64,000 nt of DNA from Persephonella sp. Its GTDB lineage: Bacteria; Aquificota; Aquificia; Aquificales; Hydrogenothermaceae. Shown here piece after piece: positions 1 through 10,212 of the stretch; the stretch's first letter is position 1; each line of letters opens with the position of its first letter. The DNA is taken from positions 1 to 64,000 of the forward strand of contig NZ_JALVTW010000025.1 in NCBI RefSeq assembly GCF_027023985.1, read 5' to 3'. The notes under the pieces were generated by a model that saw nothing but the letters and a program-made list of their open reading frames with translations, ran no database searches and was not told where the DNA came from. The position numbers were made by a program, and so were the translations under genes.

Positions 1-578
1 CCATTTGAAGGATTAATACCTTTTTCTAAGAATTTTTCATAAAAGGAAAAAGCCACTATGTTTTCAGTTAGGTTTAAAAACAACCCTACATTTTTTTCAG
101 CTTTGGGTGATGGGATATCATATTTTGATAGTAATTCTTCTAAAAAGATAGATTTAAGTAGATAGTTAAGGTATTTGTTTACTTCCCTAAAAGTCTGATT
201 TTTTGATATGGAATAATTTAGCAGGTCTATGGCTTCTGAAATAGAAAAAAGATTTTTAAGGGTTAGTGCTTTTTTAGTCAATATCTCAAATCCTAATGAA
301 TAATCTGGGTTTTGTGGAAAACTTATTTTTTTGTATAAATGGATTTTGTTAATTTTTCCTGTTTTGTCCAAATAGATTATGTTTGTGTTCTGATTTTTTA
401 ATGTGGATACTATCCAAACCGGAAGATAAAAGATAGTGAAAACGTTTTGTATATCATTTATGTTGATTTTGGTTATATCCTCTTTTTTGTGGACAAATAT
501 ATAACTGTCTTCTATGGTGAGGTTTAGAGGATTTTCTTTGAAAATGAACATATTTTTACGGATTAGATAGTCTTTCAT
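1..578 (-). CDS. cas1: Cas1-like CRISPR integrase, N-terminal part (runs off window)
   Basis: About 192 codons are present; the C-terminus lies beyond the left edge. Cas1 is the metal-dependent integrase that inserts new spacers at the leader end of an array. The first 80 residues look like the Cas1 beta-rich domain (YIFVHKKEDITKININDIQ, then a strand pair ending LDKTGKI). The helical part ends with EKFLEKGINPSNG, which matches the segment just before the usual GFLH histidine motif. Glu132 (in FREVNKYL) lies at about the spacing expected for the catalytic glutamate ahead of that histidine. The ATG at 578 was chosen because the helical and beta parts are then complete; its ribosome site is weak. 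The gene diverges from the array, with the leader between them. The call rests on motif and context only, and the sequence is divergent. Confidence 0.62.
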   Translation of the reverse strand, partial: MKDYLIRKNMFIFKENPLNLTIEDSYIFVHKKEDITKININDIQNVFTIFYLPVWIVSTLKNQNTNIIYLDKTGKINKIHLYKKISFPQNPDYSLGFEILTKKALTLKNLFSISEAIDLLNYSISKNQTFREVNKYLNYLLKSIFLEELLSKYDIPSPKAEKNVGLFLNLTENIVAFSFYEKFLEKGINPSN

Positions 579-615: not shown

Positions 616-644
616 ATAAACGATGATTTTTAAAAAATCTGACA
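616..644 (-). promoter_or_regulatory. ECF-like promoter element upstream of cas1-like gene
   Basis: On the minus strand TGTCAGA (644-638) is followed after 15 bases by CGTTTAT (622-616), about 38 bases before the ATG. The same pattern occurs ahead of two genes beside the calp operon (5587-5616 and 5809-5838). The form resembles ECF sigma promoters of the TGTC/CGT type. That CalpS uses it is inference. Confidence 0.4.
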
Positions 645-745
645 TCTAATCTGTACCGGATATGAATATGATATAAATCATAAAATCCTCTCTAAAGGGC
701 TTAAAATCTGGATTTTATAATTGAGATAATATTGAGATTTTAAAT

Positions 746-774
746 TTGACAAAATCAAGGAAAATTAGTATTCT
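746..774 (+). promoter_or_regulatory. Promoter in the CRISPR leader
   Basis: TTGACA (746-751), 17 bases, then TATTCT (769-774) gives a sigma-70-type promoter pointing into the array. Transcription would begin near 781, about 68 bases before the first repeat. The stretch 579-848 is AT-rich and holds no open frame; it fits a leader at the array end with perfect repeats. Confidence 0.55.
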
Positions 775-848
775 AATAACAGGTCTGTCCAGAGTAAAGG
801 TTTCTTGGAAACTGAATATGTTGATTTTCAACGATTACAGAGGGGGCT

Positions 849-1752
849 CTTGAAACTGACCCGTTTAATGAGGGTATTGCGACTTTTATTCAGGTATTCT
901 TCTATTTCTTCCCTGTATTTCTCTTGAAACTGACCCGTTTAATGAGGGTATTGCGACTTTGGTTGCCATTATGTCCATTATTATTGCCATATCTTGAAAC
1001 TGACCCGTTTAATGAGGGTATTGCGACTCTGGGATATAATTTTCAAGCATGGTTTGGAATTCTCTTGAAACTGACCCGTTTAATGAGGGTATTGCGACAT
1101 TGCGACCTCCTGTTATACAAGCTGAATCACGATGGACTTGAAACTGACCCGTTTAATGAGGGTATTGCGACCACCGGTGCATCACATAACTGGACGCCGC
1201 CTTGGCATTCTTGAAACTGACCCGTTTAATGAGGGTATTGCGACCACCGGTGCATCACATAACTGGACGCCGCCTTGGCATTCTTGAAACTGACCCGTTT
1301 AATGAGGGTATTGCGACGCATCTTCATGCACCTCCGTAGTTATTAGCTACACTTGAAACTGACCCGTTTAATGAGGGTATTGCGACTAAACCGCATTTAT
1401 TCTTTCTTCTGGTGTTTCATATCTTGAAACTGACCCGTTTAATGAGGGTATTGCGACGCAGGACAGCTGCAGAAAATATGACTCTGCCATTTTCGTCAAC
1501 TTGAAACTGACCCGTTTAATGAGGGTATTGCGACATTCTCTTTAACATCCCAGTGCAGTCTTTAATGCCGTCTTGAAACTGACCCGTTTAATGAGGGTAT
1601 TGCGACAATATAGAGAAATGTTTTCAATATTCTGTCCACGCTTGACTTGAAATTGACCCGTTTAATGAGGGTATTGCGACAATCATATCCCGCTTCTTTT
1701 AGCTCAGTAATAGGAACCTTGAAACTGACCCGCTTAATGAGGGTATTATGTA
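849..1752 (+). CRISPR. CRISPR array, 13 repeats and 12 spacers
   Basis: The 35-base repeat begins CTTGAAACTGACCC and ends GAGGGTATTGCGAC. Repeats start at 849, 923, 993, 1064, 1137, 1210, 1283, 1352, 1423, 1500, 1572, 1646 and 1718. Spacers are 34-42 bases. Repeats 1-11 are identical; repeat 12 has one change (AAATTG for AAACTG). Repeat 13 has CGCTT for CGTTT and a lost 3' end (ATGTAG instead of GCGAC). Decay at the right end puts the leader on the left and transcription on the plus strand. The last eight bases, ATTGCGAC, would be the crRNA 5' tag and equal the end of a repeat known from Thermus type III arrays. ACCC and GGGT inside the repeat can pair as a short stem. With the Calp genes next door, a type III interference complex is expected elsewhere in the genome. 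Confidence 0.98.
1137..1282 (+). repeat. Tandem duplication of a repeat-spacer unit in the array
   Basis: Two identical 73-base units, 1137-1209 and 1210-1282, each consist of one repeat plus the spacer starting CACCGGTGCATCACATAACT. The spacer is clearly richer in G and C than the host sequence around it. The unit was probably doubled by recombination or slippage between repeats rather than acquired twice. Confidence 0.95.
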
Positions 1753-1843
1753 GCAAATTATAGAGAAAAATAAGAGAAGATTAGATTTTAAGACTAATTT
1801 GAGTAAATACTTCCAGGGCTGATTTTGTATTAGGATTTTTATA

Positions 1844-3439
1844 TTAAAAAATACTTTTTAGTCTGCTATCTTTTATATCAAAAACCGGATAGTATTTATC
1901 TTCCGGTGCTGAAGCATTAAAGTTGAAGTTATAAACATACCCATCCCAAAAGTGTCCAATAGCCATTCCCAATGCAAAAGCAATCGGAACAGGAACACTA
2001 AGGAAAAAGTGATATTTCTGAATCTGGTATTTCACCTTAAGCACATTAAGGACAGAATAAATCTCTGATACATATCTAATCCAGTAGTCCTCAGGAATAT
2101 CCTCAAAATCCTGAGGCAAAGGAATATCACCCTGAAATTCCCTTGACTCAATCTTTATTAAAGGCCAATTTCTTCCAGTAGTCTCAAGATAATTTTGAAC
2201 ATCTCCATAAGGACTATGACTTGCCAGCCAGATAGCAACAGCTACGTTTTCCCAGCTCTCTATATTTTCTGGTATTTCAACTTCTATATTTTTCATCTGT
2301 TTTTGTATATTTTTGCGAATATATTTTATTTTTCTCAGTTTTGCGGTCGTAGATAAATCTATAACAGGAATATACTCATCTGATTGGTAATGATAAACTA
2401 AAACAGGTTTCTTGGTTCCCAATTTTATTCCAAGCCCCATTGCCAGAGATATAGGAACAGATAAACCTATATGCAACACTCTTTTTTTTAAATCTACTTT
2501 TGAATAGATATTTTTTAATTTTTCCTCAAAATTCAAAACCTGCTTAATCCATTCATTTTCTTCTGAGAGTTGTTCTGGCGTTATAGCTGGAAGGGAATTC
2601 TCATAAGAAATAGCTAAATCTTTTCTTTCAATACCTAAAATATTTTTCAAACCATTAATAGAAAAATCCTTTTCCTTTTTCTTTATTTTCTTCTCTATTT
2701 TATTTAATGCTATGGTTGTTTCCTGTGGTGGTCTTTTTACCAAATAGACAAAAGGAATATCTACAGGTTTATCTCCAAGCCAGTAAATAAGTTCGTCTAT
2801 TTTATCAAGGCTATCCGGAGTTATAAGTTTAAGATTATGTGATTTGGCAATTTCTTCTTTTTGAGGAATATATGAAACCTCAAATATTTCTCCCTCTTCG
2901 TTAACCACTCCGGTAAAAGCAAAATTTTTTATATTTTCTTCAGGAAGCAATAAACCTGCTGTAACTGCCAGCATAAAGGATTTTCCGGTGAAATCTCTGT
3001 CAAAAACTACAAAAAAGTTTTGAATTTGGTGTTTCTTAGTTTTCAGCAGTTGTTTTATAGTGCTTAAAGCCTGCCTTATTTCTAAATTTGACGAAAAAGT
3101 TAATGTATCTATCGGTTTCGGGAGAGGTATTATATAGGCTGTTGCAAGTTCTCCTTTATTGTTTAAAGCAATTGGGAATTTTACCTCTATTGGTGTTGAT
3201 TTGAATATTTTTTTAGTGTTTAGCTCTGAAGTTTTTAGAAGTTTAGAAAGTTTTTCTATATCAAATAAATCTTCTCTTTTTTTTATTTGTGTCCATATTA
3301 AGAATTTAATTTCATTAGAGGTGGTTTTATCATTTAGAAGCTGATATAGTTCATCTACTTCTTTTGGTTCAACGGCTCCGCTTCTTAAAATCTCTTTAAG
3401 CCTTTCTGGTTTATTTTTATACTTTAATAATTCCCCCAA
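1844..3439 (-). CDS. calpL: CalpL, cA4-activated Lon-SAVED protease
   Basis: A protease switched on by cyclic tetra-adenylate made by a type III CRISPR complex. Residues about 90-235 are Lon-protease-like, with serine nucleophile Ser154 in FTGKSFMLA and candidate dyad lysine Lys194 in SYIPQKEEIA. The spacing matches the published Ser152/Lys193 pair of the Sulfurihydrogenibium protein. Residues about 260-531 are a SAVED domain made of two CARF-like halves, seen as HIGLSVPISLAMGLGIKLG (323-341) and HFFLSVPVPIAFALGMAIG (477-495). The family partner is CalpT, encoded directly upstream. The start is a TTG right after the CalpT stop (TAATTG), with AGAGG inside calpT as ribosome site. It is the last gene of the operon and faces the array. 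Homologues are described as protease and also as ring nuclease; those activities are known for the family, not shown here. Confidence 0.93.
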   Translation of the reverse strand: MGELLKYKNKPERLKEILRSGAVEPKEVDELYQLLNDKTTSNEIKFLIWTQIKKREDLFDIEKLSKLLKTSELNTKKIFKSTPIEVKFPIALNNKGELATAYIIPLPKPIDTLTFSSNLEIRQALSTIKQLLKTKKHQIQNFFVVFDRDFTGKSFMLAVTAGLLLPEENIKNFAFTGVVNEEGEIFEVSYIPQKEEIAKSHNLKLITPDSLDKIDELIYWLGDKPVDIPFVYLVKRPPQETTIALNKIEKKIKKKEKDFSINGLKNILGIERKDLAISYENSLPAITPEQLSEENEWIKQVLNFEEKLKNIYSKVDLKKRVLHIGLSVPISLAMGLGIKLGTKKPVLVYHYQSDEYIPVIDLSTTAKLRKIKYIRKNIQKQMKNIEVEIPENIESWENVAVAIWLASHSPYGDVQNYLETTGRNWPLIKIESREFQGDIPLPQDFEDIPEDYWIRYVSEIYSVLNVLKVKYQIQKYHFFLSVPVPIAFALGMAIGHFWDGYVYNFNFNASAPEDKYYPVFDIKDSRLKSIF

Positions 3440-4330
3440 TTATTTGACCTCTTTTATGGTTATGTTTTGTCCAATATAGTCTATGTTAATATTATCTTTG
3501 AACTCTTCCGGAATAGCTATTTGTATAACTTTTGGAAGATTTTCAAACTCATATTTTTCACCGAAAATTTCCAGCGCCGCAGGTTTATCTATTAGCTCTT
3601 CAGCTGGTTCTAACTCAAGGATTTTTTCTTCTTTGTTGTAAAACAGGGTAAAATTCTTACCTCTGTAAACAGTCTTTTCTTCCCCTGCAGCCAAAAGCTG
3701 TTTTTCTAATCTTTCAGGGGAAAGTTCTATAATAGTTTCCTCTTCCCAAAACTCAGGGGATTGAGCAAATACTTGCATTTTAAATGTCCTCTCAATTTCA
3801 TCTTTTAAAAATTGTTCCTGATAAAATCCCTCTCCTTCAGGATAAGAAAGACCTCTTCTATCTTTTGGGAGTTCTTCAATTTCTCCGTTATAGAATTTTT
3901 GAAGTATATCTATATCCTCTTTCTTCAATTTTCCAATATAAATAGCTTCATTTTTAATAAATTCTTCATCTAAGTTTAAAATTATTGGTAAAACAGCAAA
4001 TTTGTTAGAAATAGGATGTTCAAAATCTACGATAAGAGCTTTATCAGAAGCAAGTTGCCAGTAAGGTGTCATAACAAGAGCTATATATAAATCTTCTGTT
4101 TTATCCAAAATTGTGAAGAATATAGGTAAATTCTCGTCGGGATATTCATATACATTTCCGGCTTCAATTTTTTCATTTTTTTCAAATTTTGAAGGGGATA
4201 CTTTATCTAATATTTTCAAAATTTTATCTACCTCCTCTTTGGAAACTTTAAATTCCGGAGCTTCACCTTCTACTTTTTGCTGTGAAAGAGCTTTTTTGTA
4301 TTCGTTGTATATCAATTCTATTAGACGCAT
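3440..4330 (-). CDS. calpT: CalpT, MazF-like inhibitor cleaved by CalpL
   Basis: In the described Calp system CalpT bridges the protease and the sigma factor, and its cleavage by CalpL releases CalpS. The 296-residue product has a helical N-terminus (1-55). A MazF/PemK-like beta-rich part follows (about 56-150; AGNVYEY, YIALVMTPYW, DKALIVDFEHPISNKFAVLP), then a linker and a C-terminal part of about 10 kDa. Cleavage of the homologue gives pieces of about 23 and 10 kDa, so a cut between about residues 190 and 216 is expected; the segment QLLAAGEE is one candidate. The start ATG at 4330 was chosen over one 12 codons upstream because GAGGAGA sits nine bases before it, just after the calpS stop at 4345. 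The MazF resemblance is weak by eye, and no MazF catalytic residues are claimed. Confidence 0.85.
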   Translation of the reverse strand: MRLIELIYNEYKKALSQQKVEGEAPEFKVSKEEVDKILKILDKVSPSKFEKNEKIEAGNVYEYPDENLPIFFTILDKTEDLYIALVMTPYWQLASDKALIVDFEHPISNKFAVLPIILNLDEEFIKNEAIYIGKLKKEDIDILQKFYNGEIEELPKDRRGLSYPEGEGFYQEQFLKDEIERTFKMQVFAQSPEFWEEETIIELSPERLEKQLLAAGEEKTVYRGKNFTLFYNKEEKILELEPAEELIDKPAALEIFGEKYEFENLPKVIQIAIPEEFKDNINIDYIGQNITIKEVK

Positions 4331-4344
4331 ATCTGTTCTCCTCG

Positions 4345-5100
4345 CTAACTTCCTTTTAATAAACAAACTTTTTTACAAATTTCTGACATCAGAATACCTT
4401 TTTCTACGGCATATTCATAAATTTCGTAAGGAAACTTATGCTTCAGCATAATATCTTTTAATTTTTTTCTGTATCTTTCTCTGCCTTTATAGGTAGCGTC
4501 TTTTGAGCTGTCTTTTATGCAATCTTCAAGGTTATATTCATCAAAACAAAGAACTTTTTTCTCTTTTTCAGTTAAATTTTTTTGCAATAAATCAGTTAGA
4601 TGATTTGCTTCATCAAATAATAAAATTTCATTTTCCAGATTAACAGGACTTTCCAGACTTTCTTCCCGGGTCTTGTCAGTGCTTTCCTTGTGTTCAGGCT
4701 CATTTAAAGATATCTTTTCAAATGCAAGTTCAGATTTGTATTTTTTTAAAGGGTCTAATATGAAGTTGTTTTTTACAATGGTTTTTAGATAACTCTTTAT
4801 ATAGGACTGATTTCTATTCTGTATCACATTCAGGATTTTTTCTTTTTCTTTGTAGATTTTTGTTACCAAAAAAGGAAAAATTTCTTCAACGCAGGATATA
4901 ATTTTGTCTGAATAGGAATCTTCACAAACATACTCGGTTGTAAGCAGTTTGTATTTGTAATTAGTTGTATCATCTTTGAGAAAATCTTTTATTGCAAAAT
5001 ATATAATTTTTTTGAGCTCTATAAATAAAAATTCCAGCTCTTTATCAGAAACATTATTTTCATTAGTTAAAAATTTATATAAACCTTCTTTAAATTCCAT
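4345..5100 (-). CDS. calpS: CalpS, ECF-like sigma factor held by CalpT
   Basis: A 251-residue sigma factor of the extracytoplasmic-function type by organisation. A region-2-like helix lies near residues 95-125 (SYIKSYLKTIVKNNFILDPL). A region-4 helix-turn-helix follows at about 165-225 (LTEKEKKVLCFDEYN, then a basic helix GRERYRKKLKDI). The two are joined by an acidic linker rich in Glu and Ser. In the known system it is sequestered by CalpT-CalpL until cA4 arrives. Its ATG lies two bases after the stop of the upstream gene, with AGAGG inside that gene's end, so translation is probably coupled. Target promoters have not been read from this protein; the TGTCARA-N15/16-YGTTWAT elements nearby are candidates. 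A C-terminal tail with four cysteines (184, 194, 242, 246) is present. Confidence 0.85.
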   Translation of the reverse strand: MEFKEGLYKFLTNENNVSDKELEFLFIELKKIIYFAIKDFLKDDTTNYKYKLLTTEYVCEDSYSDKIISCVEEIFPFLVTKIYKEKEKILNVIQNRNQSYIKSYLKTIVKNNFILDPLKKYKSELAFEKISLNEPEHKESTDKTREESLESPVNLENEILLFDEANHLTDLLQKNLTEKEKKVLCFDEYNLEDCIKDSSKDATYKGRERYRKKLKDIMLKHKFPYEIYEYAVEKGILMSEICKKVCLLKGS

Positions 5101-5102
5101 TC

Positions 5103-5552
5103 TTAGCCTCTTTGATATTTCTTAATTTGCTTATATATATCTTCAATTTCTTGTTTATCACAAAATCCACAGGGTTGTGCTATATATTTAAGTTGCTCGG
5201 TGGTCAGTAAAAAAATTATTTTGTTTCCCCATAATCTAAAAACCTTTGATTTATTTTCCCATTTAAATAGTTTATTTTTACAAATACAGACTTTTTTTGT
5301 GCAGTTATTTATATTGATAGGAAGGAAATCTCCCTTTGTAGTTAGAAAAATTATTTTCTTTATAATCTTTTTATTTTTAGACAAAACTATTAATGGCCTA
5401 CAATCTCGTCCCCTCTGACTTCCTAACGGGACTTTAAGAGTTTTTTCTGCTTTGTTAACTTCTGACAACCATAAGGAAGCAAAATCATCTTTTTGTAGTT
5501 TTTCTTCAATCTTTGTTTGTAATATTTTCTTTAATTCTTCTCTGAAATTCAT
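5103..5552 (-). CDS. MazF/PemK-like small protein, first gene of the calp operon
   Basis: A 149-residue protein of unknown role that heads the operon, two bases before calpS. The segment VPLGSQRGRDCRPLIVLSKN (41-60) followed by IIFLTTKGD resembles the MazF/PemK signature, in which a Gly-rich loop is followed by RPxxVLS and a strand. The C-terminal half is Cys-rich: Cys84, Cys89 and Cys91, then Cys128 and Cys131 in a CGFC motif, which could bind zinc. A leading helix (1-35) precedes the beta part. CalpT is also described as MazF-like, so the operon would encode two related folds. It could be a toxin, a CalpT paralogue or a structural partner; I cannot tell which. The start is the first ATG, and the predicted promoter leaves almost no untranslated leader. 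Confidence 0.5.
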   Translation of the reverse strand: MNFREELKKILQTKIEEKLQKDDFASLWLSEVNKAEKTLKVPLGSQRGRDCRPLIVLSKNKKIIKKIIFLTTKGDFLPININNCTKKVCICKNKLFKWENKSKVFRLWGNKIIFLLTTEQLKYIAQPCGFCDKQEIEDIYKQIKKYQRG

Positions 5553-5562
5553 ATCACTTTAA

Positions 5563-5592
5563 ATAATAATAAAATCTCAGCAGCGGTGTCAA
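5563..5592 (-). promoter_or_regulatory. Promoter of the calp operon
   Basis: On the minus strand a perfect TTGACA (5592-5587), 18 bases, then TATTAT (5568-5563). The start would fall about 4-5 bases before the ATG at 5552, so the mRNA would be leaderless or nearly so. The -35 box is also the complement of the TGTCA of a divergent element on the plus strand. Confidence 0.5.
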
Positions 5593-5616
5593 AAGTCATT
5601 GATTTTTTCCGTTAAT
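5587..5616 (+). promoter_or_regulatory. ECF-like promoter element ahead of the 39-residue protein gene
   Basis: TGTCAAA (5587-5593), 16 bases, CGTTAAT (5610-5616). The predicted start is near 5622, giving a leader of about 20 bases that contains the strong AGGAGAAGG ribosome site. It has the same layout as the elements at 616-644 and 5809-5838 and overlaps the calp operon promoter. Confidence 0.42.
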
Positions 5617-5642
5617 TAATAAAAATCCTATAGGAGAAGGAA

Positions 5643-5762
5643 ATGGCTAAGAAAAAAATAAGGCAAAATAAAATGGCTGTTGCTGTAAACAAATCTATTG
5701 CGAACAGACAGGCCATTAGCACACTTGGAAGAGCAAGAATGTTTAAAAACAAGAAAAAGTAA
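5643..5762 (+). CDS. Very basic 39-residue protein of unknown function
   Basis: ATG at 5643 is preceded by a strong ribosome site, AGGAGAAGG. The product has 13 Lys or Arg in 39 residues and no Asp or Glu (it starts MAKKKIRQNKMAV and ends RMFKNKKK). Such a composition suggests contact with RNA or DNA, or membrane disturbance. It has no membrane segment and no cysteine. It is transcribed away from the calp operon from an adjoining divergent promoter region. It could be an ordinary ribosome-associated peptide of the lineage, or a CalpS-controlled response gene; the second idea rests only on the promoter element. Confidence 0.6.
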   Translation: MAKKKIRQNKMAVAVNKSIANRQAISTLGRARMFKNKKK

Positions 5763-5808
5763 AAGCCTCCTAAAAAAATCAAAAATATTGATGAGTTTTT
5801 ATATTAGG

Positions 5809-5838
5809 TGTCAGATTTTTGGAAAAATATCTGTTAAT
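5809..5838 (+). promoter_or_regulatory. ECF-like promoter element ahead of the DUF1232 gene
   Basis: TGTCAGA (5809-5815), 16 bases, TGTTAAT (5832-5838). The region from 5809 shares TGTCAGATTTTT and a following AAAAAT...GTT.ATAAAAT with the promoter region of the cas1-like gene. The same stretch holds an AT-rich inverted repeat, CAGATTTTT/AAAAATATCTG. Confidence 0.42.
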
Positions 5839-5869
5839 AAAATTAAAAAATCTTTAAGGAGGTAAGTTG

Positions 5870-6307
5870 ATGAAAAACTTTAACTTTGACGAGGAAAAAC
5901 TTAAAAAGTTTGTTGAGGAGAATATCCCTAAGGTTACCGAGAAAGATATACAGAGGGTTTTAGATAAAGAAAAGGAACTCCGTAAAAAGTTTCAGGGCAA
6001 TACTCCTCTGGGGCAGTTTGTTAAAGACTTAAAAATTTTGTTTTCTATGATAAAAGATTATGCTAACGGCTTATATAGAGAAATACCCTGGTTATCTATC
6101 GCTGCAATAGTATTTGCTCTCTTGTATGTTCTATCTCCCGTAGATTTTATACCTGATTTTATCCCCGGAGTTGGGTATGTAGATGATGCCTTTGTTATGG
6201 GACTTGTCCTGATGATGATAAAAGAAGATTTATACAGATATAGAGAGTGGAAAGTCCAGAGTGAGCTTAAAAACTCTACGCAGGGAGGGGGAGAAAATAT
6301 AACATAA
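5870..6307 (+). CDS. DUF1232 (YkvA-like) membrane protein
   Basis: A 145-residue protein with the DUF1232 signature LLYVLSPVDFIPDFIPGVGY at about 81-100, between two hydrophobic stretches (roughly 70-90 and 100-115). A charged N-terminal half (FDEEKLKKFVEENIPKVTEKD) probably lies in the cytoplasm. The biochemical role of the family is unknown. The ATG at 5870 is used because AGGAGGT lies six bases upstream; a TTG codon directly before it is in frame but too close to that site. It lies about 100 bases after the 39-residue protein gene, behind its own ECF-like element, and before a weak terminator. Confidence 0.8.
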   Translation: MKNFNFDEEKLKKFVEENIPKVTEKDIQRVLDKEKELRKKFQGNTPLGQFVKDLKILFSMIKDYANGLYREIPWLSIAAIVFALLYVLSPVDFIPDFIPGVGYVDDAFVMGLVLMMIKEDLYRYREWKVQSELKNSTQGGGENIT

Positions 6308-6319
6308 CCAATTACTTTT

Positions 6320-6340
6320 GGGGTATCCCCCTCTTTTTTA
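6320..6340 (+). terminator. Weak intrinsic terminator
   Basis: GGGG-TAT-CCCC followed by CTCTTTTTTA, starting 13 bases after the DUF1232 stop. The stem is only four G-C pairs. Confidence 0.4.
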
Positions 6341-6404
6341 ACTTTAAATAATATTCTTCTGTTGTAAAGTCAGTTTGATTAATAACTTAATCATTTTTAC
6401 AAAC

Positions 6405-6432
6405 TTGATTGCAACTTTGTATGTCTTATAAT
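6405..6432 (+). promoter_or_regulatory. Sigma-70-type promoter
   Basis: TTGATT (6405-6410), 16 bases, TATAAT (6427-6432), about 35 bases ahead of the next gene's ATG. Confidence 0.5.
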
Positions 6433-6466
6433 AGTTTTAGTTAGGAATAATATTACCGAGGCTAAG

Positions 6467-6727
6467 ATGGATATACTGCATAATATTGCATTATGGATTT
6501 TGGACTTATTTGACCACGGGTTAAAAGCATTTGAACCTTTACAGGGGAGAGTTGATTTAGATGAAAAAAAATATACTGCAATGCAGGGGATTGTGCACTT
6601 TATAGGTTGGTCTGTTGCTATAGGAATTATCATCTGGGTATTTAAATATATGAAAAAACATGCCCAGCAAGATGAAAGAATGAAAAAGTATTACGGTAAA
6701 TCAGAAGAGGATAAACCTCAAAATTGA
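6467..6727 (+). CDS. Small membrane protein of unknown function
   Basis: An 86-residue protein. It has an amphipathic start (MDILHNIALWILDLFDHG) and one clear membrane helix near residues 44-62 (IVHFIGWSVAIGIIIWVFKY). A very charged tail (KHAQQDERMKKYYGKSEEDK) follows. GAGG lies about nine bases before the ATG, and a good promoter stands upstream. It meets the pentaheme cytochrome gene tail to tail with a ten-base overlap. I do not recognise the family. It may belong with respiratory proteins, but only position suggests this. Confidence 0.65.
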   Translation: MDILHNIALWILDLFDHGLKAFEPLQGRVDLDEKKYTAMQGIVHFIGWSVAIGIIIWVFKYMKKHAQQDERMKKYYGKSEEDKPQN

Positions 6728-7629
6728 AACTCTTTTTGAAGAACTTTTTCCTTTTTATCTTTCCATGAAAGTTTTCTCAAGATTGTAATCACTACTTTAT
6801 CCGGTTTTGAATCAATAAAGAAATCCATCTCTTTCCATTTTCCAAATTTTAGAGGGTCTTTGGAATTTATTATCTGCATCTGATTAAAGATTTCATCTCC
6901 ATTTTTAAATCCTGTCAAGTATATATAAAGCTTAGGTTTTCCGTTATCAGCTGTAGGAACTGAATGGGGTATTCCTGTGTTTTTTATGCTAAGGGTAAGG
7001 ATATCATCATCAATGGAAACCTTAACCTGAAAATCCTTTTCAGAGGCTATAGAAGCAGGAAATTTATGGGAATGGATATCTTTTTTAGAATGCAGGTATG
7101 TAAACGGGAATTTTTGGATAAGTCTGCCCTTTTTGGCTGGCATGTGGCATTCCTGACAGTTTCTCTTTGAAGCTGTCTGTTGCCATTGCTGATAAGTTTT
7201 TTGATGGCAGGAAGAACAAACCTTTGATGTTATATAAACAGGGTCATAAGTGGAGTAGTGAGGCGGAGAAAATACATCATAGGGACCATGCATTGAATTT
7301 GTTTCTTCTTTGTAATGGCAGGAAAAGCAGTTAACTCCTTCTTTCCTAAGTTTATTTCTTAGCTGTGGTTTTTCTTCAGGATGTATCTCAAGGGGTGCGT
7401 GGCAGGAAAGACATTTAGTTTTAGTATGGTTATTACTTGCTTCTATATAATGGGGAGAAGTCCATGCTTTTGCATGTCTGGAATCAAGCCATTGGTTGTA
7501 TATGTTTTGATGGCATTCTGAACATCTTTTGGCAGGAGGACGCTGGAGCAGGTCCTCCTCTAAGAATAATTTTTCTACTTTGTCGCAACCTGCTATGAAA
7601 GCCGCTAATAATAGCAGGAGTAAAGGCAT
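6718..7629 (-). CDS. Pentaheme c-type cytochrome lipoprotein (cytochrome c554-like)
   Basis: An exported electron carrier. The N-terminus is a lipoprotein signal with lipobox AGC (Cys15), so it should be anchored outside the inner membrane. Five CxxCH haem sites stand at residues 36-40, 73-77, 101-105, 138-142 and 158-162. Extra histidines nearby (SRHAKAW, SMHGPY, PPHYS) can serve as distal ligands. The C-terminal 130 residues have no haem site and look beta-rich (HSVPTADNGKPKLYIYL). The layout suits the cytochrome c554/c' group of multihaem proteins; the redox partner is not readable. It is the last gene of the rubredoxin-methyltransferase-triheme operon, two bases after the previous stop. 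Confidence 0.82.
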   Translation of the reverse strand: MPLLLLLLAAFIAGCDKVEKLFLEEDLLQRPPAKRCSECHQNIYNQWLDSRHAKAWTSPHYIEASNNHTKTKCLSCHAPLEIHPEEKPQLRNKLRKEGVNCFSCHYKEETNSMHGPYDVFSPPHYSTYDPVYITSKVCSSCHQKTYQQWQQTASKRNCQECHMPAKKGRLIQKFPFTYLHSKKDIHSHKFPASIASEKDFQVKVSIDDDILTLSIKNTGIPHSVPTADNGKPKLYIYLTGFKNGDEIFNQMQIINSKDPLKFGKWKEMDFFIDSKPDKVVITILRKLSWKDKKEKVLQKEFQF

Positions 7630-7631
7630 TT

Positions 7632-8456
7632 TTAATCACCAAATTTTTCTTTAAGCAAATAAAGTGTTTGGTGAACATTATGGCATTTAACACAATTGTT
7701 TTGTGCTATCCAGCCGATATGGGTTGAAATAGCTTTTTTGTCTGATTTTTTGATAGCTTCCTGAAGGGCATTTATATGCTTTTGAGTTCTCTCTCCAAAG
7801 TATATCTTTTCTGAACCTTCTTCCTGTGTATGACACTCACTGCAGGATTGGGATAATCCTTTCAGTCTTTTTGTAAATGAAAGACCGGCTTTTTTTGCTT
7901 CTTTGTTTTTTCCTTCTGTAAGGTATACTTTCAGCAGTTTCATATCATTTGCTACATTTTTCATATAATCGCCGTATTCAAGCTTTTGACCGGATACCGG
8001 GTCTTCAACATTTATTTTCTTAAAATCAGGGGTATGATATTTAACTTTTACAGAGGCCTGATATGTTCTATGACACTGGACACAGGTTCTTCCTATTGCT
8101 TTTAGATTTTCCATTGCTGTTGCTTTGTCTTTGTTTTTAACTGCTTCTATTAATTTCTCTGCATTGGCTTTTTTTAGGTTTCTATCCCATTTTTTGACCA
8201 TTTGGCCGATTTTTAGATAATTTTCCTGTAATTTTTTAGCCCATAATTGTGCATTCTGCCAGTCTTCTCCTTTAAGATTTACAACCAGACCGGTCATTGA
8301 TGTTGAAAGCTGATGCATCAGGCTTAGAAATTCATATTTTTCAGATTTAGGTGGATAGTATTTTGAAAGTTCATCTGGGGGGTCTTTCAGTTTTACATTT
8401 TTTGCAAAAGCAGATGTAAGTAGTAATAAACTTAATATCCCTGCTAAAGCTCTCAT
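7632..8456 (-). CDS. Triheme periplasmic c-type cytochrome
   Basis: A 274-residue protein with a cleavable signal peptide (MRALAGILSLLLLTSAFA). Three CxxCH motifs stand at 125-129 (CVQCH), 205-209 (CSECH) and 255-259 (CVKCH). Each follows a helical segment, so the protein looks like repeated cytochrome-c'-type helical bundles. The N-terminal bundle (about 40-120) supplies the helices for the first haem. It probably hands electrons to or from the pentaheme lipoprotein encoded next. The ribosome site AGGAGGG six bases before the ATG is also one arm of an inverted repeat (8463-8499), which may limit translation. Confidence 0.82.
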   Translation of the reverse strand: MRALAGILSLLLLTSAFAKNVKLKDPPDELSKYYPPKSEKYEFLSLMHQLSTSMTGLVVNLKGEDWQNAQLWAKKLQENYLKIGQMVKKWDRNLKKANAEKLIEAVKNKDKATAMENLKAIGRTCVQCHRTYQASVKVKYHTPDFKKINVEDPVSGQKLEYGDYMKNVANDMKLLKVYLTEGKNKEAKKAGLSFTKRLKGLSQSCSECHTQEEGSEKIYFGERTQKHINALQEAIKKSDKKAISTHIGWIAQNNCVKCHNVHQTLYLLKEKFGD

Positions 8457-8462
8457 TTTTGT

Positions 8463-8499
8463 CCCTCCTGTCTTTTTATTTTATAAATTTGCAGGAGGG
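8463..8499 (-). promoter_or_regulatory. Inverted repeat that can hide the cytochrome ribosome site
   Basis: On the minus strand CCCTCCTG (8499-8492), a 21-base AT-rich loop, then CAGGAGGG (8470-8463). The second arm contains the Shine-Dalgarno sequence of the triheme cytochrome gene. No T-run follows, so it does not look like an intrinsic terminator. It sits between the methyltransferase stop and the cytochrome ATG. Confidence 0.55.
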
Positions 8500-8503
8500 G
8501 AAT

Positions 8504-9127
8504 TTATCTTTTTATGGCCATAATCATAAAAACAGGATAATCTCTTTTTTGCCCTTCTCTTTCTTTGGTTATGGTATGGACTATCTGGTATTTGACTTTT
8601 TCCAGACCGCTTTCTTTTAGCCAGTTTTCAACCTCTTTCTCATCAAAGCCAAAATGTTTTACATCTGTATTATCTGAATGAAATGTGCCATCTTCTTTGT
8701 AGAGGTCTATTACTGCAATATAGCCCCCTGTTTTAAGATATTCCTTTAGCTTTTTTAGGACTTCAATTGGGTCATCAAGATGGTGAAATGTCATTGAGGT
8801 GATAATCAGGTCAAAATCCTTTTCAGGAAAGCCCTCTGATATAATGTCATGTTTATAAATTCTTATGTTGTTTATATTATTTTTCTCAATTTTTTCTTTG
8901 AAAACATTAAGCATTCCTTCAGAAAGGTCAAAAGCTACAATCTCTTTTACGTAAGGTGCAAGCATTATATCCAGAATACCTGTGCCTGCTCCTATATCCA
9001 TAACTTTAAAGCTCTTGGTATCAGGAAGATTGTTTAAAATAGCCTTCAGGAAATCCTCAGACCTTTTGTATTTTTCCGGGGTGTCGTATCTGTTTGCAAC
9101 TGCGTCAAATCTTTTTCCTATATCCAT
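8504..9127 (-). CDS. SAM-dependent class I methyltransferase
   Basis: A 207-residue Rossmann-fold methyltransferase. Motif I is VMDIGAGTGILDIML (about 43-57), the acidic end of strand 2 is IVAFDLSEGML, and motif IV is FDLIITSMTFHHLDD. The substrate is not evident: the fold is like UbiE/Coq5 and many other small-molecule methylases, and the neighbouring quinone- or haem-linked genes do not decide it. Its ATG shares one base with the stop of the rubredoxin gene (TGATG), so the two are translationally coupled. Confidence 0.8.
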   Translation of the reverse strand: MDIGKRFDAVANRYDTPEKYKRSEDFLKAILNNLPDTKSFKVMDIGAGTGILDIMLAPYVKEIVAFDLSEGMLNVFKEKIEKNNINNIRIYKHDIISEGFPEKDFDLIITSMTFHHLDDPIEVLKKLKEYLKTGGYIAVIDLYKEDGTFHSDNTDVKHFGFDEKEVENWLKESGLEKVKYQIVHTITKEREGQKRDYPVFMIMAIKR

Positions 9128-9321
9128 CAGTCAATCCTGTAAAAATGGGATTTAGGATATTCACAAACAGGACATCTCCACTTATCAGGAAGTTCCTCAA
9201 ATCTTATTCCTGGGGAAATAGCCCTTTTTTCATCTCCTTTTTCAGGGTCATATATATACCCGCAGACTTTACATCTAAACCTGCCTATAGTCCTGTCCTT
9301 GATAATCACCTTTTCCTTCAT
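9127..9321 (-). CDS. Rubredoxin
   Basis: A 64-residue one-iron electron carrier. The four cysteine ligands lie in [11 protein letters not shown] and [13 protein letters not shown], the standard rubredoxin pattern. About a dozen residues precede the usual N-terminus ([15 protein letters not shown]). It heads an operon with a methyltransferase and two multihaem cytochromes; rubredoxins of such organisms often serve oxygen or superoxide removal. No Shine-Dalgarno site is seen. A possible -10 box (TATATT) lies six bases ahead of the ATG, so a leaderless message is possible. Confidence 0.93.
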
Positions 9322-9337
9322 ATCTAAAATATAGCAT

Positions 9338-9359
9338 AAAATTCATATCTTTGAATTTT
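9338..9359. promoter_or_regulatory. AT-rich inverted repeat upstream of rubredoxin
   Basis: AAAATTCA, six bases, TGAATTTT: perfect eight-base arms. It overlaps where the -35 and spacer of the rubredoxin promoter would lie, so it may be an operator. It could equally be part of the transcript end of the cyclase gene. Confidence 0.3.
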
Positions 9360-9417
9360 GTAGAATTATCTTGTGCAAGCTATTAAGACAATAATTATAA
9401 ATTGTAGTAGTTCCTTA

Positions 9418-10212
9418 TTAATAATTTTCAATAATTTTCAAAACAGCATTTATATGTTTTTCTCCATGCTTCTTGCACCAATCACTTTCGATTTTATAAT
9501 ACTTAAAATTGCTTTTCTTTTTTGTATAATATTTTTTCCAAGGACTAATATTTTCGCCTTTTAAACATCCACAAGAAATAACTAAGTAATTCTTAAACTT
9601 TTCTTGATTTAAAACATTATATATGTTTTCATCAATTCCTATTACCGTTTTGTTAGAAAAACGTTTCACATTTTTCGAGATTAATGCTGCATTATTGATA
9701 GCATTACCTGCCCAAACAAAGAATTTATCATCTCCTCTTTGTCCAATTAGTTTTACTAATAGATCTCCTTTAGAAATTCCGATTCCAAAAGAAAGATTTA
9801 CACCATATTTATTTTTGAATTTTTCCCTTACATACTCTTCTTGAAACGTTTTGAACGTTTTAGCTGCCAGAAAAGCTTTAATTTCCGCATATTCACCAGA
9901 GAAAAGAGATATTCCCCCATCTCCTTTTATGTCAATAAATTCGGAACCAAAGCTTTTGCTAATCTTTACAAATGGATATCCCGTATACTCTAAAAATTTA
10001 GCATAAACTCTTTTTGTTTTTCTATTAGAGATCTGTGTTGAATTCTTTAAATCTACAAGAACAACTACAACGTTATCAACTCTATTCCAAATTGGCTTTT
10101 CTACTTTTGCATTATTTATTGCTTGTTCTATAGTATTGTAGGTTTCTATTCTAATATTTTCTAAATAGCTTAGTTTTTCTTTTAATTTCTCAAAGAAACC
10201 CCAAAGTTCCAT
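9418..10212 (-). CDS. Stand-alone class III nucleotide cyclase, possibly Pycsar-like
   Basis: A 264-residue soluble cyclase-type protein. The catalytic domain spans about 45-235. Metal aspartates are Asp54 (VLVDLKNST) and Asp98 (IKGDGGISLF), followed by GVNLSFGIGISKGD and FVWAGNAINNAAL. The transition-state Asn is present (Asn173), but the Arg that usually follows four residues later is Leu177. There is no receptor, membrane or HAMP part; the first 45 residues are a helix. Small cyclases of this shape make cCMP or cUMP in Pycsar phage defence, but a Pycsar effector gene is normally adjacent and none is seen. Other options are an ordinary adenylate cyclase or an inactive relic. The flanks are AT-rich and non-coding (10213-10469). 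Confidence 0.72.
   Translation of the reverse strand: MELWGFFEKLKEKLSYLENIRIETYNTIEQAINNAKVEKPIWNRVDNVVVVLVDLKNSTQISNRKTKRVYAKFLEYTGYPFVKISKSFGSEFIDIKGDGGISLFSGEYAEIKAFLAAKTFKTFQEEYVREKFKNKYGVNLSFGIGISKGDLLVKLIGQRGDDKFFVWAGNAINNAALISKNVKRFSNKTVIGIDENIYNVLNQEKFKNYLVISCGCLKGENISPWKKYYTKKKSNFKYYKIESDWCKKHGEKHINAVLKIIENY

What the first reader, a model, noticed from the sequence alone, without database searches (positions are those of the whole stretch)
616..5838. Shared ECF-like promoter element at three genes around the CRISPR-Calp locus: candidate CalpS regulon
Directly seen: TGTCAGA-N15-CGTTTAT (644-616, minus, before the cas1-like gene), TGTCAAA-N16-CGTTAAT (5587-5616, before the 39-residue protein gene) and TGTCAGA-N16-TGTTAAT (5809-5838, before the DUF1232 gene). 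The first and third also share TGTCAGATTTTT and ATAAAAT. Known: some ECF sigma factors (for example the ECF41 group) use TGTC-type -35 and CGT-type -10 boxes, and CalpS is an ECF-like sigma released by cA4 signalling. Inferred: freed CalpS turns on spacer acquisition and two small response genes. I saw no further copy in front of other genes here.
Basis: partly seen in the sequence, partly recalled or inferred. Interest (0 to 1): 0.8.

Follow-up and report, generated by a model that had tools for sequence, protein, structure and literature searches.

The report
CRISPR-wide promoter element, likely CalpS-read
A short two-part promoter signal, first noticed at three genes beside a CRISPR alarm system, turns out to sit in front of CRISPR genes all over this bacterium and its relatives, which suggests that detecting a virus makes the cell switch on its whole CRISPR arsenal through one dedicated transcription factor (CalpS); that factor's role is inferred, not shown.

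Summary
The three sites are real and exact. Shuffles of the window give 0.01 expected matches; 4 are found. In the 1.9 Mb genome the motif occurs 8 times (0 in the reversed control). Six are promoter-positioned, all at CRISPR/Calp genes: cas1', calpT, p39, DUF1232, plus cas10 and cmr1 on other contigs. Across 41 genomes of the family the general form TGTCAGA-N16/17-GTTWAT occurs 122 times against 11 in the control, mostly about 33 nt before cas10, cas6, cas1', cas8b, csm2, cmr1, calpT, p39 or DUF1232 when promoter-positioned. In the strain whose CalpL was crystallised it precedes cas6. It reaches a second family. Motif-bearing cas promoters track Calp presence (p=0.001 and 0.007), and no other classical ECF sigma was found. 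Best reading: CalpS, freed by cA4 signalling, boosts the whole CRISPR system plus its own anti-sigma and protease. Weak point: five Calp-negative genomes keep the motif at cas genes, so recognition by CalpS is inferred, not shown.

The parts
616..644 (-). Promoter-like site 1: TGTCAGA-N15-CGTTTAT, 37 nt before the ATG (578) of cas1'
   Evidence: same site at the orthologue in L025, L118, L112, L126, L133
4359..4388 (-).
   Evidence: kept in G072 (two copies), G073, G077, G083, G069, G104 although the encoded CalpS tail differs (FR-stop vs CL)
5587..5616 (+). Promoter-like site 2: TGTCAAA-N16-CGTTAAT, 26 nt before the 39-residue protein gene
   Evidence: kept in G072, G073, G077 and with one changed base in G083
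5809..5838 (+). Promoter-like site 3: TGTCAGA-N16-TGTTAAT, 31 nt before the DUF1232 ATG (5870)
   Evidence: 30/30 identical in G072 and G083, diverged but kept in G077
3..578 (-). cas1' (degenerate Cas1-like, truncated at the contig start); intact orthologues are followed by cas2-cas1-cas2
   Evidence: no Pfam/NCBIfam/PADLOC hit
645..842 (.). Region between site 1 and the first CRISPR repeat (presumed leader, since the degenerate repeat is at the right end)
   Evidence: read from the sequence
845..1752 (+). CRISPR array, last repeat degenerate (limits approximate)
   Evidence: read from the sequence
1844..3439 (-). calpL: Lon protease-SAVED (cA4-activated protease)
   Evidence: Pfam SAVED 3e-20; PADLOC CRISPR-Lon 3e-105; PDB 7qda CalpL 8e-43
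3440..4330 (-). calpT: anti-sigma factor
   Evidence: PADLOC CRISPR-T 1e-12; synteny and profile family
4345..5100 (-). calpS: ECF-like sigma factor
   Evidence: member of a profile family found beside calpT-calpL; weak structural match to sigma factors
5103..5552 (-). Conserved Cys-rich gene directly upstream of calpS, candidate fourth Calp gene
   Evidence: a similar Cys-rich ORF is present at this place in all 21 Calp loci examined
5643..5762 (+). p39: 39-residue basic protein, putative regulon member
   Evidence: homologues in G072, G073, G077, G083 beside Calp, each preceded by the motif or a one-base variant
5870..6307 (+). DUF1232 protein, putative regulon member
   Evidence: Pfam PF06803 1.7e-14; orthologues only in G000, G072, G083, G077, G065

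Best explanation
The element TGTCAGA-N15/16-NGTTWAT is a -35/-10 promoter read by the ECF-like sigma factor CalpS. Type III detection of viral RNA makes cA4; cA4 activates CalpL; CalpL cuts CalpT; CalpS is freed and starts transcription shortly before a set of genes. These are (a) the CRISPR machinery itself: cas10/csm, cmr, cas6, type I-B genes and the cas1'-cas2-cas1 acquisition operon; (b) a few accessory genes (p39, DUF1232, and in relatives membrane-anchored RmuC-like nucleases); and (c) calpT-calpL. Induction of (a) is a positive loop that raises surveillance, crRNA processing and acquisition after detection. Induction of (c) is a brake: new CalpT re-captures CalpS, and new CalpL, whose SAVED domain is a ring nuclease (PMC11417357), removes cA4. 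The cas10 promoter often has a second, sigma70-like TTGACA box downstream of the motif, giving basal expression for surveillance. Shown here: the element, its gene set, its conservation, its link with Calp. Known from the literature: cA4-CalpL-CalpT-CalpS signalling. Inferred: that CalpS reads the element, the transcription start, and both loops.
For: Exact motif 8x in the genome, 0 in control; 6 promoter-positioned, all at CRISPR/Calp genes. Fourth site found independently. Family-wide 122 vs 11 control hits. Promoter-positioned copies have a median distance of 33 nt to the start codon. Targets: cas10, cas6, cmr1, csm2, cas8b, cas1'-cas2-cas1, calpT. At calpT the -10 box is conserved while the overlapping CalpS codons differ. 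Same gene classes in family f2: csm2, cas10, cas2-cas1, cas7b, and a GGTTTAT variant before calpT. In the strain with CalpL identical to PDB 7qda the motif precedes cas6. Motif-bearing cas promoters associate with Calp: p=0.0013 and p=0.007. Layout matches ECF41 promoters. No other classical ECF sigma found: the own genome's other sigma70 proteins have regions 1.2 and/or 3 or lie in the flagellar cluster, and the latter also exists in Calp-negative G092.
Against: Calp-negative genomes G076 (5 sites), G065, G091, G092 and G098 keep the motif before cas6, cas10 or cas1'. Each belongs to a genus with Calp-positive members, so loss or an assembly gap is possible, but another reader is not excluded. 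Four Calp-positive genomes (G081, G093, G100, G103) show no exact motif at a cas gene. CalpS has no Pfam or PDB sequence match to sigma factors, and its model is only moderately confident (pLDDT 72; best Foldseek E 0.45). The association tests ignore shared ancestry. No expression data.
Confidence: 0.72

Rival explanations
1. The element is a genuine CRISPR-wide promoter, but it is read by a sigma factor other than CalpS that is present in all these genomes; Calp association reflects that Calp and type III loci travel together.
For: Motif persists at cas6/cas10/cas1' in Calp-negative G065, G076, G091, G092, G098. All ten genomes tested have four or more sigma70-type proteins.
Against: No classical ECF sigma found in the own genome; the small two-domain one sits in the flagellar cluster and is equally present in G092, which has a single cas site. 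Calp-negative genomes have far fewer promoter-positioned sites (12 vs 49, of which 5 in G076). calpT itself carries the site, as expected of the cognate sigma.
Confidence: 0.18
2. The element is a binding site of a DNA-binding repressor or activator of cas genes rather than a sigma promoter.
For: Some copies look dyad-symmetric, e.g. GATTTTTTAAAAATC at site 1.
Against: Dyad score over 74 sites barely exceeds spacer-shuffled copies (5.53 vs 5.16 of 8; no site reaches 8). Two boxes with fixed N15/16 spacing at a fairly constant distance before start codons, with only an A/T bias in the spacer, fit a promoter.
Confidence: 0.06
3. Chance matches or sequence constrained by something else (coding in calpS, recent duplication).
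For: The calpT site overlaps the CalpS reading frame (MSEIC), and site 3 is 30/30 identical in three genomes, so those copies are not independent.
Against: 122 vs 11 control matches; copies before cas6, cas10, cas1' differ throughout the spacer; different CalpS codons give the same -10 box; present in two families.
Confidence: 0.02

Closest known systems
CalpL/CalpT/CalpS of Sulfurihydrogenibium sp. YO3AOP1 (type III-B CRISPR; PMC11417357, PMC12751052)
   Same: Same three proteins in the same order; the CalpL of genome G099 is identical to PDB 7qda and that genome carries the element before cas6.
   Different: The papers held describe release of CalpS and a 'transcriptional response' but name no promoter or regulon; the original Nature paper was not held.
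ECF41 sigma factor promoters (TGTCACA-n16-CGTC; PMC3426412)
   Same: TGTCA-type -35, CGT/TGT-type -10, 16 nt spacing.
   Different: Here -35 is TGTCAGA and -10 is NGTTWAT; CalpS is controlled by a protease-cut anti-sigma rather than a fused C-terminal domain.
DdvS/DdvA ECF sigma/anti-sigma of Myxococcus xanthus (cited in PMC12288465)
   Different: DdvA is described as a transmembrane anti-sigma (title of the cited 2024 paper); Calp is released by the CRISPR system's own cA4 signal, which would close a loop, and its candidate regulon is dispersed over several loci.
Csa3a/Csa3b of Sulfolobales (PMC8844856, PMC7480081)
   Same: cOA-binding factors that control acquisition genes, arrays and cmr genes: the same logic of type III detection feeding back on cas expression.
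   Different: CARF-wHTH DNA-binding proteins in archaea that bind the signal directly; no sigma factor or proteolysis.

Membership tests
Calp system (CalpL/T/S) | CalpL: Lon protease fused to SAVED | tested here: met
   Pfam SAVED, PADLOC CRISPR-Lon, PDB CalpL matches
Calp system (CalpL/T/S) | CalpT and CalpS genes directly upstream of calpL | tested here: met
   PADLOC CRISPR-T 1e-12; CalpS profile found next to calpT-calpL throughout the order
Calp system (CalpL/T/S) | cA4-dependent cleavage of CalpT and release of CalpS | not testable with these tools
   biochemical; reported for the Sulfurihydrogenibium proteins (PMC11417357)
ECF sigma factor | sigma2 and sigma4 domains only | tested here: inconclusive
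   no Pfam hit, no PDB sequence hit; most Foldseek matches, including the top 17, are sigma-factor chains but best E is 0.45
ECF-type promoter | two boxes, about 16 nt apart, -10 with CGT/TGT core, a short distance before the gene | tested here: met
ECF41 promoter | -35 TGTCACA and -10 CGTC | tested here: not met
   consensus here TGTCAGA and NGTTWAT
CalpS regulon | transcription dependent on CalpS | not testable with these tools
   needs transcription assays
CalpS regulon | promoter at the sigma/anti-sigma locus itself | tested here: met
   site before calpT in G000, G072, G073, G077, G083, G069, G104 and, as a variant, G046

The most novel reading that the evidence does not exclude
A type III CRISPR system uses its own alarm molecule to release a dedicated sigma factor that redirects RNA polymerase to all CRISPR-Cas operons of the cell (RNA-targeting, DNA-targeting and spacer acquisition), to membrane-anchored nucleases, and to its own anti-sigma factor and ring-nuclease protease, making CRISPR immunity an inducible, self-limiting stress regulon conserved across Aquificales.
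Probability: 0.6. Interest if true: 0.88.

Novelty: new variant of a known kind. Interest (0 to 1): 0.78.

Why it matters
What CalpS switches on is the missing last step of the Calp pathway, and the papers held here do not answer it. This gives an explicit promoter sequence, a ready list of target genes in some twenty genomes, and single promoters (cas6, calpT) that can be tested in vitro with the very proteins already purified. If right, type III CRISPR detection would induce the whole CRISPR arsenal, including DNA-targeting type I-B and spacer acquisition, with a built-in brake.

Tried and rejected
A first loose pattern was mis-specified (off-spacing TGTCA+N16/17): 11 hits vs 9 control, kept as an off-spacing control. 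The correct loose form gave 13 vs 4; the five extra hits were taken as noise. Dyad-symmetry (operator) reading: no clear excess. Spacer-length control in fetched loci is biased because most loci were chosen by the motif; not used as proof. An apparent 222-aa 'ECF' found by PF04542 proved to be the flagellar-cluster sigma. PDB sequence searches with the CalpS and cas1' profiles found nothing. The 39-residue protein is too short for a collection search. G000:C2 and C3 hits are inside genes; C11:131076 precedes a non-cas gene and is identical in Calp-negative relatives, so it is not counted as regulon.
Full report
OBSERVATION. The three elements are at the stated places and are exact matches of TGTCARA-N15/16-YGTTWAT. 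In dinucleotide shuffles of the window 0.01 matches are expected and none of 100 shuffles had four; the window has four. It lies in the last codons of calpS and 28 nt before the calpT ATG (4330). Since it was not used to write the pattern, it is independent support.

OWN GENOME. The window is the start of contig C25 of a 1.90 Mb, 38-contig genome. The pattern occurs 8 times, 0 times reversed. Two hits are inside genes (C2, C3). The other six are about 26-55 nt before genes: cas1', calpT, p39 and DUF1232 in the window, cas10/csm1 at C31:4884 (Pfam Cas10 palm 1e-30, PADLOC Cas10 2e-122), and a cmr1-headed type III-B operon that continues into type I-B genes at C37:50773 (PADLOC Cmr1 3e-35). All six belong to CRISPR or the Calp locus.

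RELATIVES. CalpL is found in 54 of 112 genomes of the order, CalpS by an 18-sequence profile in 46. The general form TGTCAGA-N16/17-GTTWAT occurs 122 times in 41 genomes of the family, 11 times reversed. Reading the surroundings of these hits, most promoter-positioned copies precede cas10, cas6, cas1', csm2, cmr1, cas8b, calpT, p39 or DUF1232. G077 (another genus; CalpL 38% identical) alone has a dozen, including RmuC (Pfam 3.5e-51) and an archaeal-type Holliday-junction-endonuclease relative (Pfam 1.7e-43), both with an N-terminal membrane-anchor-like stretch. The pooled promoter-positioned sites lie a median 33 nt before the start codon, consensus TGTCAGA...CGTTTAT with an A/T-rich spacer. 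Among loci fetched by cas6 or cas10 protein similarity, and so not chosen by motif, about half have the element within 130 nt upstream (10 of 21 and 10 of 22), with further one-base variants.

SECOND FAMILY. In family f2 exact copies stand before csm2 (G002), cas2-cas1 (G018), cas10 (G020) and cas7b (G036, G059) (cas7b Pfam DevR 9e-29). G046 has TGTCAGA-N16-GGTTTAT at the calpS end just before calpT, as in the window, and a related copy before a cas1-like-cas2-cas1-cas2 operon.

LINK TO CALP. Genomes with the element in promoter position at a cas or Calp gene: 15 of 20 Calp-positive against 5 of 21 Calp-negative in the window's family (p=0.0013), 5 of 25 against 0 of 39 in f2 (p=0.007; relatedness not corrected, and the f1 count includes calpT sites). 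At calpT the -10 box is formed by different codons (CGT TAA in some species, TGT TTA in others) with the same spacing, which argues for constraint on the DNA. The strain whose CalpL is identical to PDB 7qda has the element 32 nt before cas6.

WHAT SPEAKS AGAINST CalpS. Calp-negative G076, G065, G091, G092 and G098 keep the element at cas6, cas10 or cas1'. Each belongs to a genus with Calp-positive members, so loss with relic promoters, horizontal arrival of the gene with its promoter, or an assembly gap are possible, but a second reader of the element cannot be excluded. CalpS shows no sequence match to sigma factors; its predicted fold finds mostly sigma factors (top 17), without significance (best E 0.45). 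On the other hand no other classical ECF sigma was found in the genome, although a search that misses CalpS itself could miss others.

MECHANISM. Shown: the element and its gene set. From the literature: cA4 activates CalpL, CalpT is cut, CalpS is released, and CalpL's SAVED domain is a ring nuclease (PMC11417357, PMC12751052). Inferred: CalpS then drives the element. This gives a positive loop through cas10, cas6 and acquisition genes and a negative loop through calpT-calpL. At cas10 a TTGACA/TTGACT box follows the element in many species (for example G000, G081, G069, G065, G068), fitting a basal sigma70 promoter plus an inducible one; this was judged by eye only.

COMPARISON. The layout resembles ECF41 promoters (TGTCACA-n16-CGTC, PMC3426412) but the boxes differ. 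Functionally the nearest precedents are DdvS/DdvA in Myxococcus and cA4-binding Csa3 factors in archaea. Literature searches found no description of a CalpS promoter or regulon, but the original Calp paper was not held.

VERDICT. The element is almost certainly a CRISPR-wide promoter of Aquificales; CalpS as its reader is the best explanation (0.72).

Noticed in passing
window 5103-5552 (minus) and the ORF directly upstream of calpS in L025, L024, L109, L102, L106, L027, L116, L026, L144, L142, L147, L148, L032, L028, L030, L036, L033, L034, L031, L351: A small Cys-rich protein (4-7 Cys, C-terminal CGxC/CAxC motif) is encoded directly upstream of calpS in all 21 Calp loci examined, including the crystallised strain: a candidate fourth Calp component, perhaps zinc-binding. 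No family match.
   Followed up: partly
window 3-578 (minus); L118:2323-3174, L112:1835-2707, L126:4743-5600, L133:2343-3200: A degenerate Cas1-like protein heads a cas1'-cas2-cas1-cas2 operon; in the comparison with Cas1 the conserved FLH reads FLN or VLN. Role unknown.
   Followed up: partly
L110 (G077:C143) 4853-9999: Five copies of the element within 5.2 kb, before small genes, a lipoprotein-like gene and proteins of unknown function: a possible further effector island.
   Followed up: no
L105 (G083 second contig, 164 kb) 5166 and 8248: Element copies before a DEAD-box helicase gene and near a short protein matching the CalpL profile (9e-25); a CalpT-profile match lies 5 kb on.
   Followed up: no
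upstream of cas10 in L251, L254, L259, L264, L128 and others: TTGACA/TTGACT box downstream of the element, suggesting tandem inducible and basal promoters.
   Followed up: partly
L031 (G088) 10470, 11679, 14567 (minus): Beside a diverged Calp locus, three copies with a T-run before CGTTTAT precede a AAA ATPase, a lipoprotein-like gene and a 63-residue gene.
   Followed up: no
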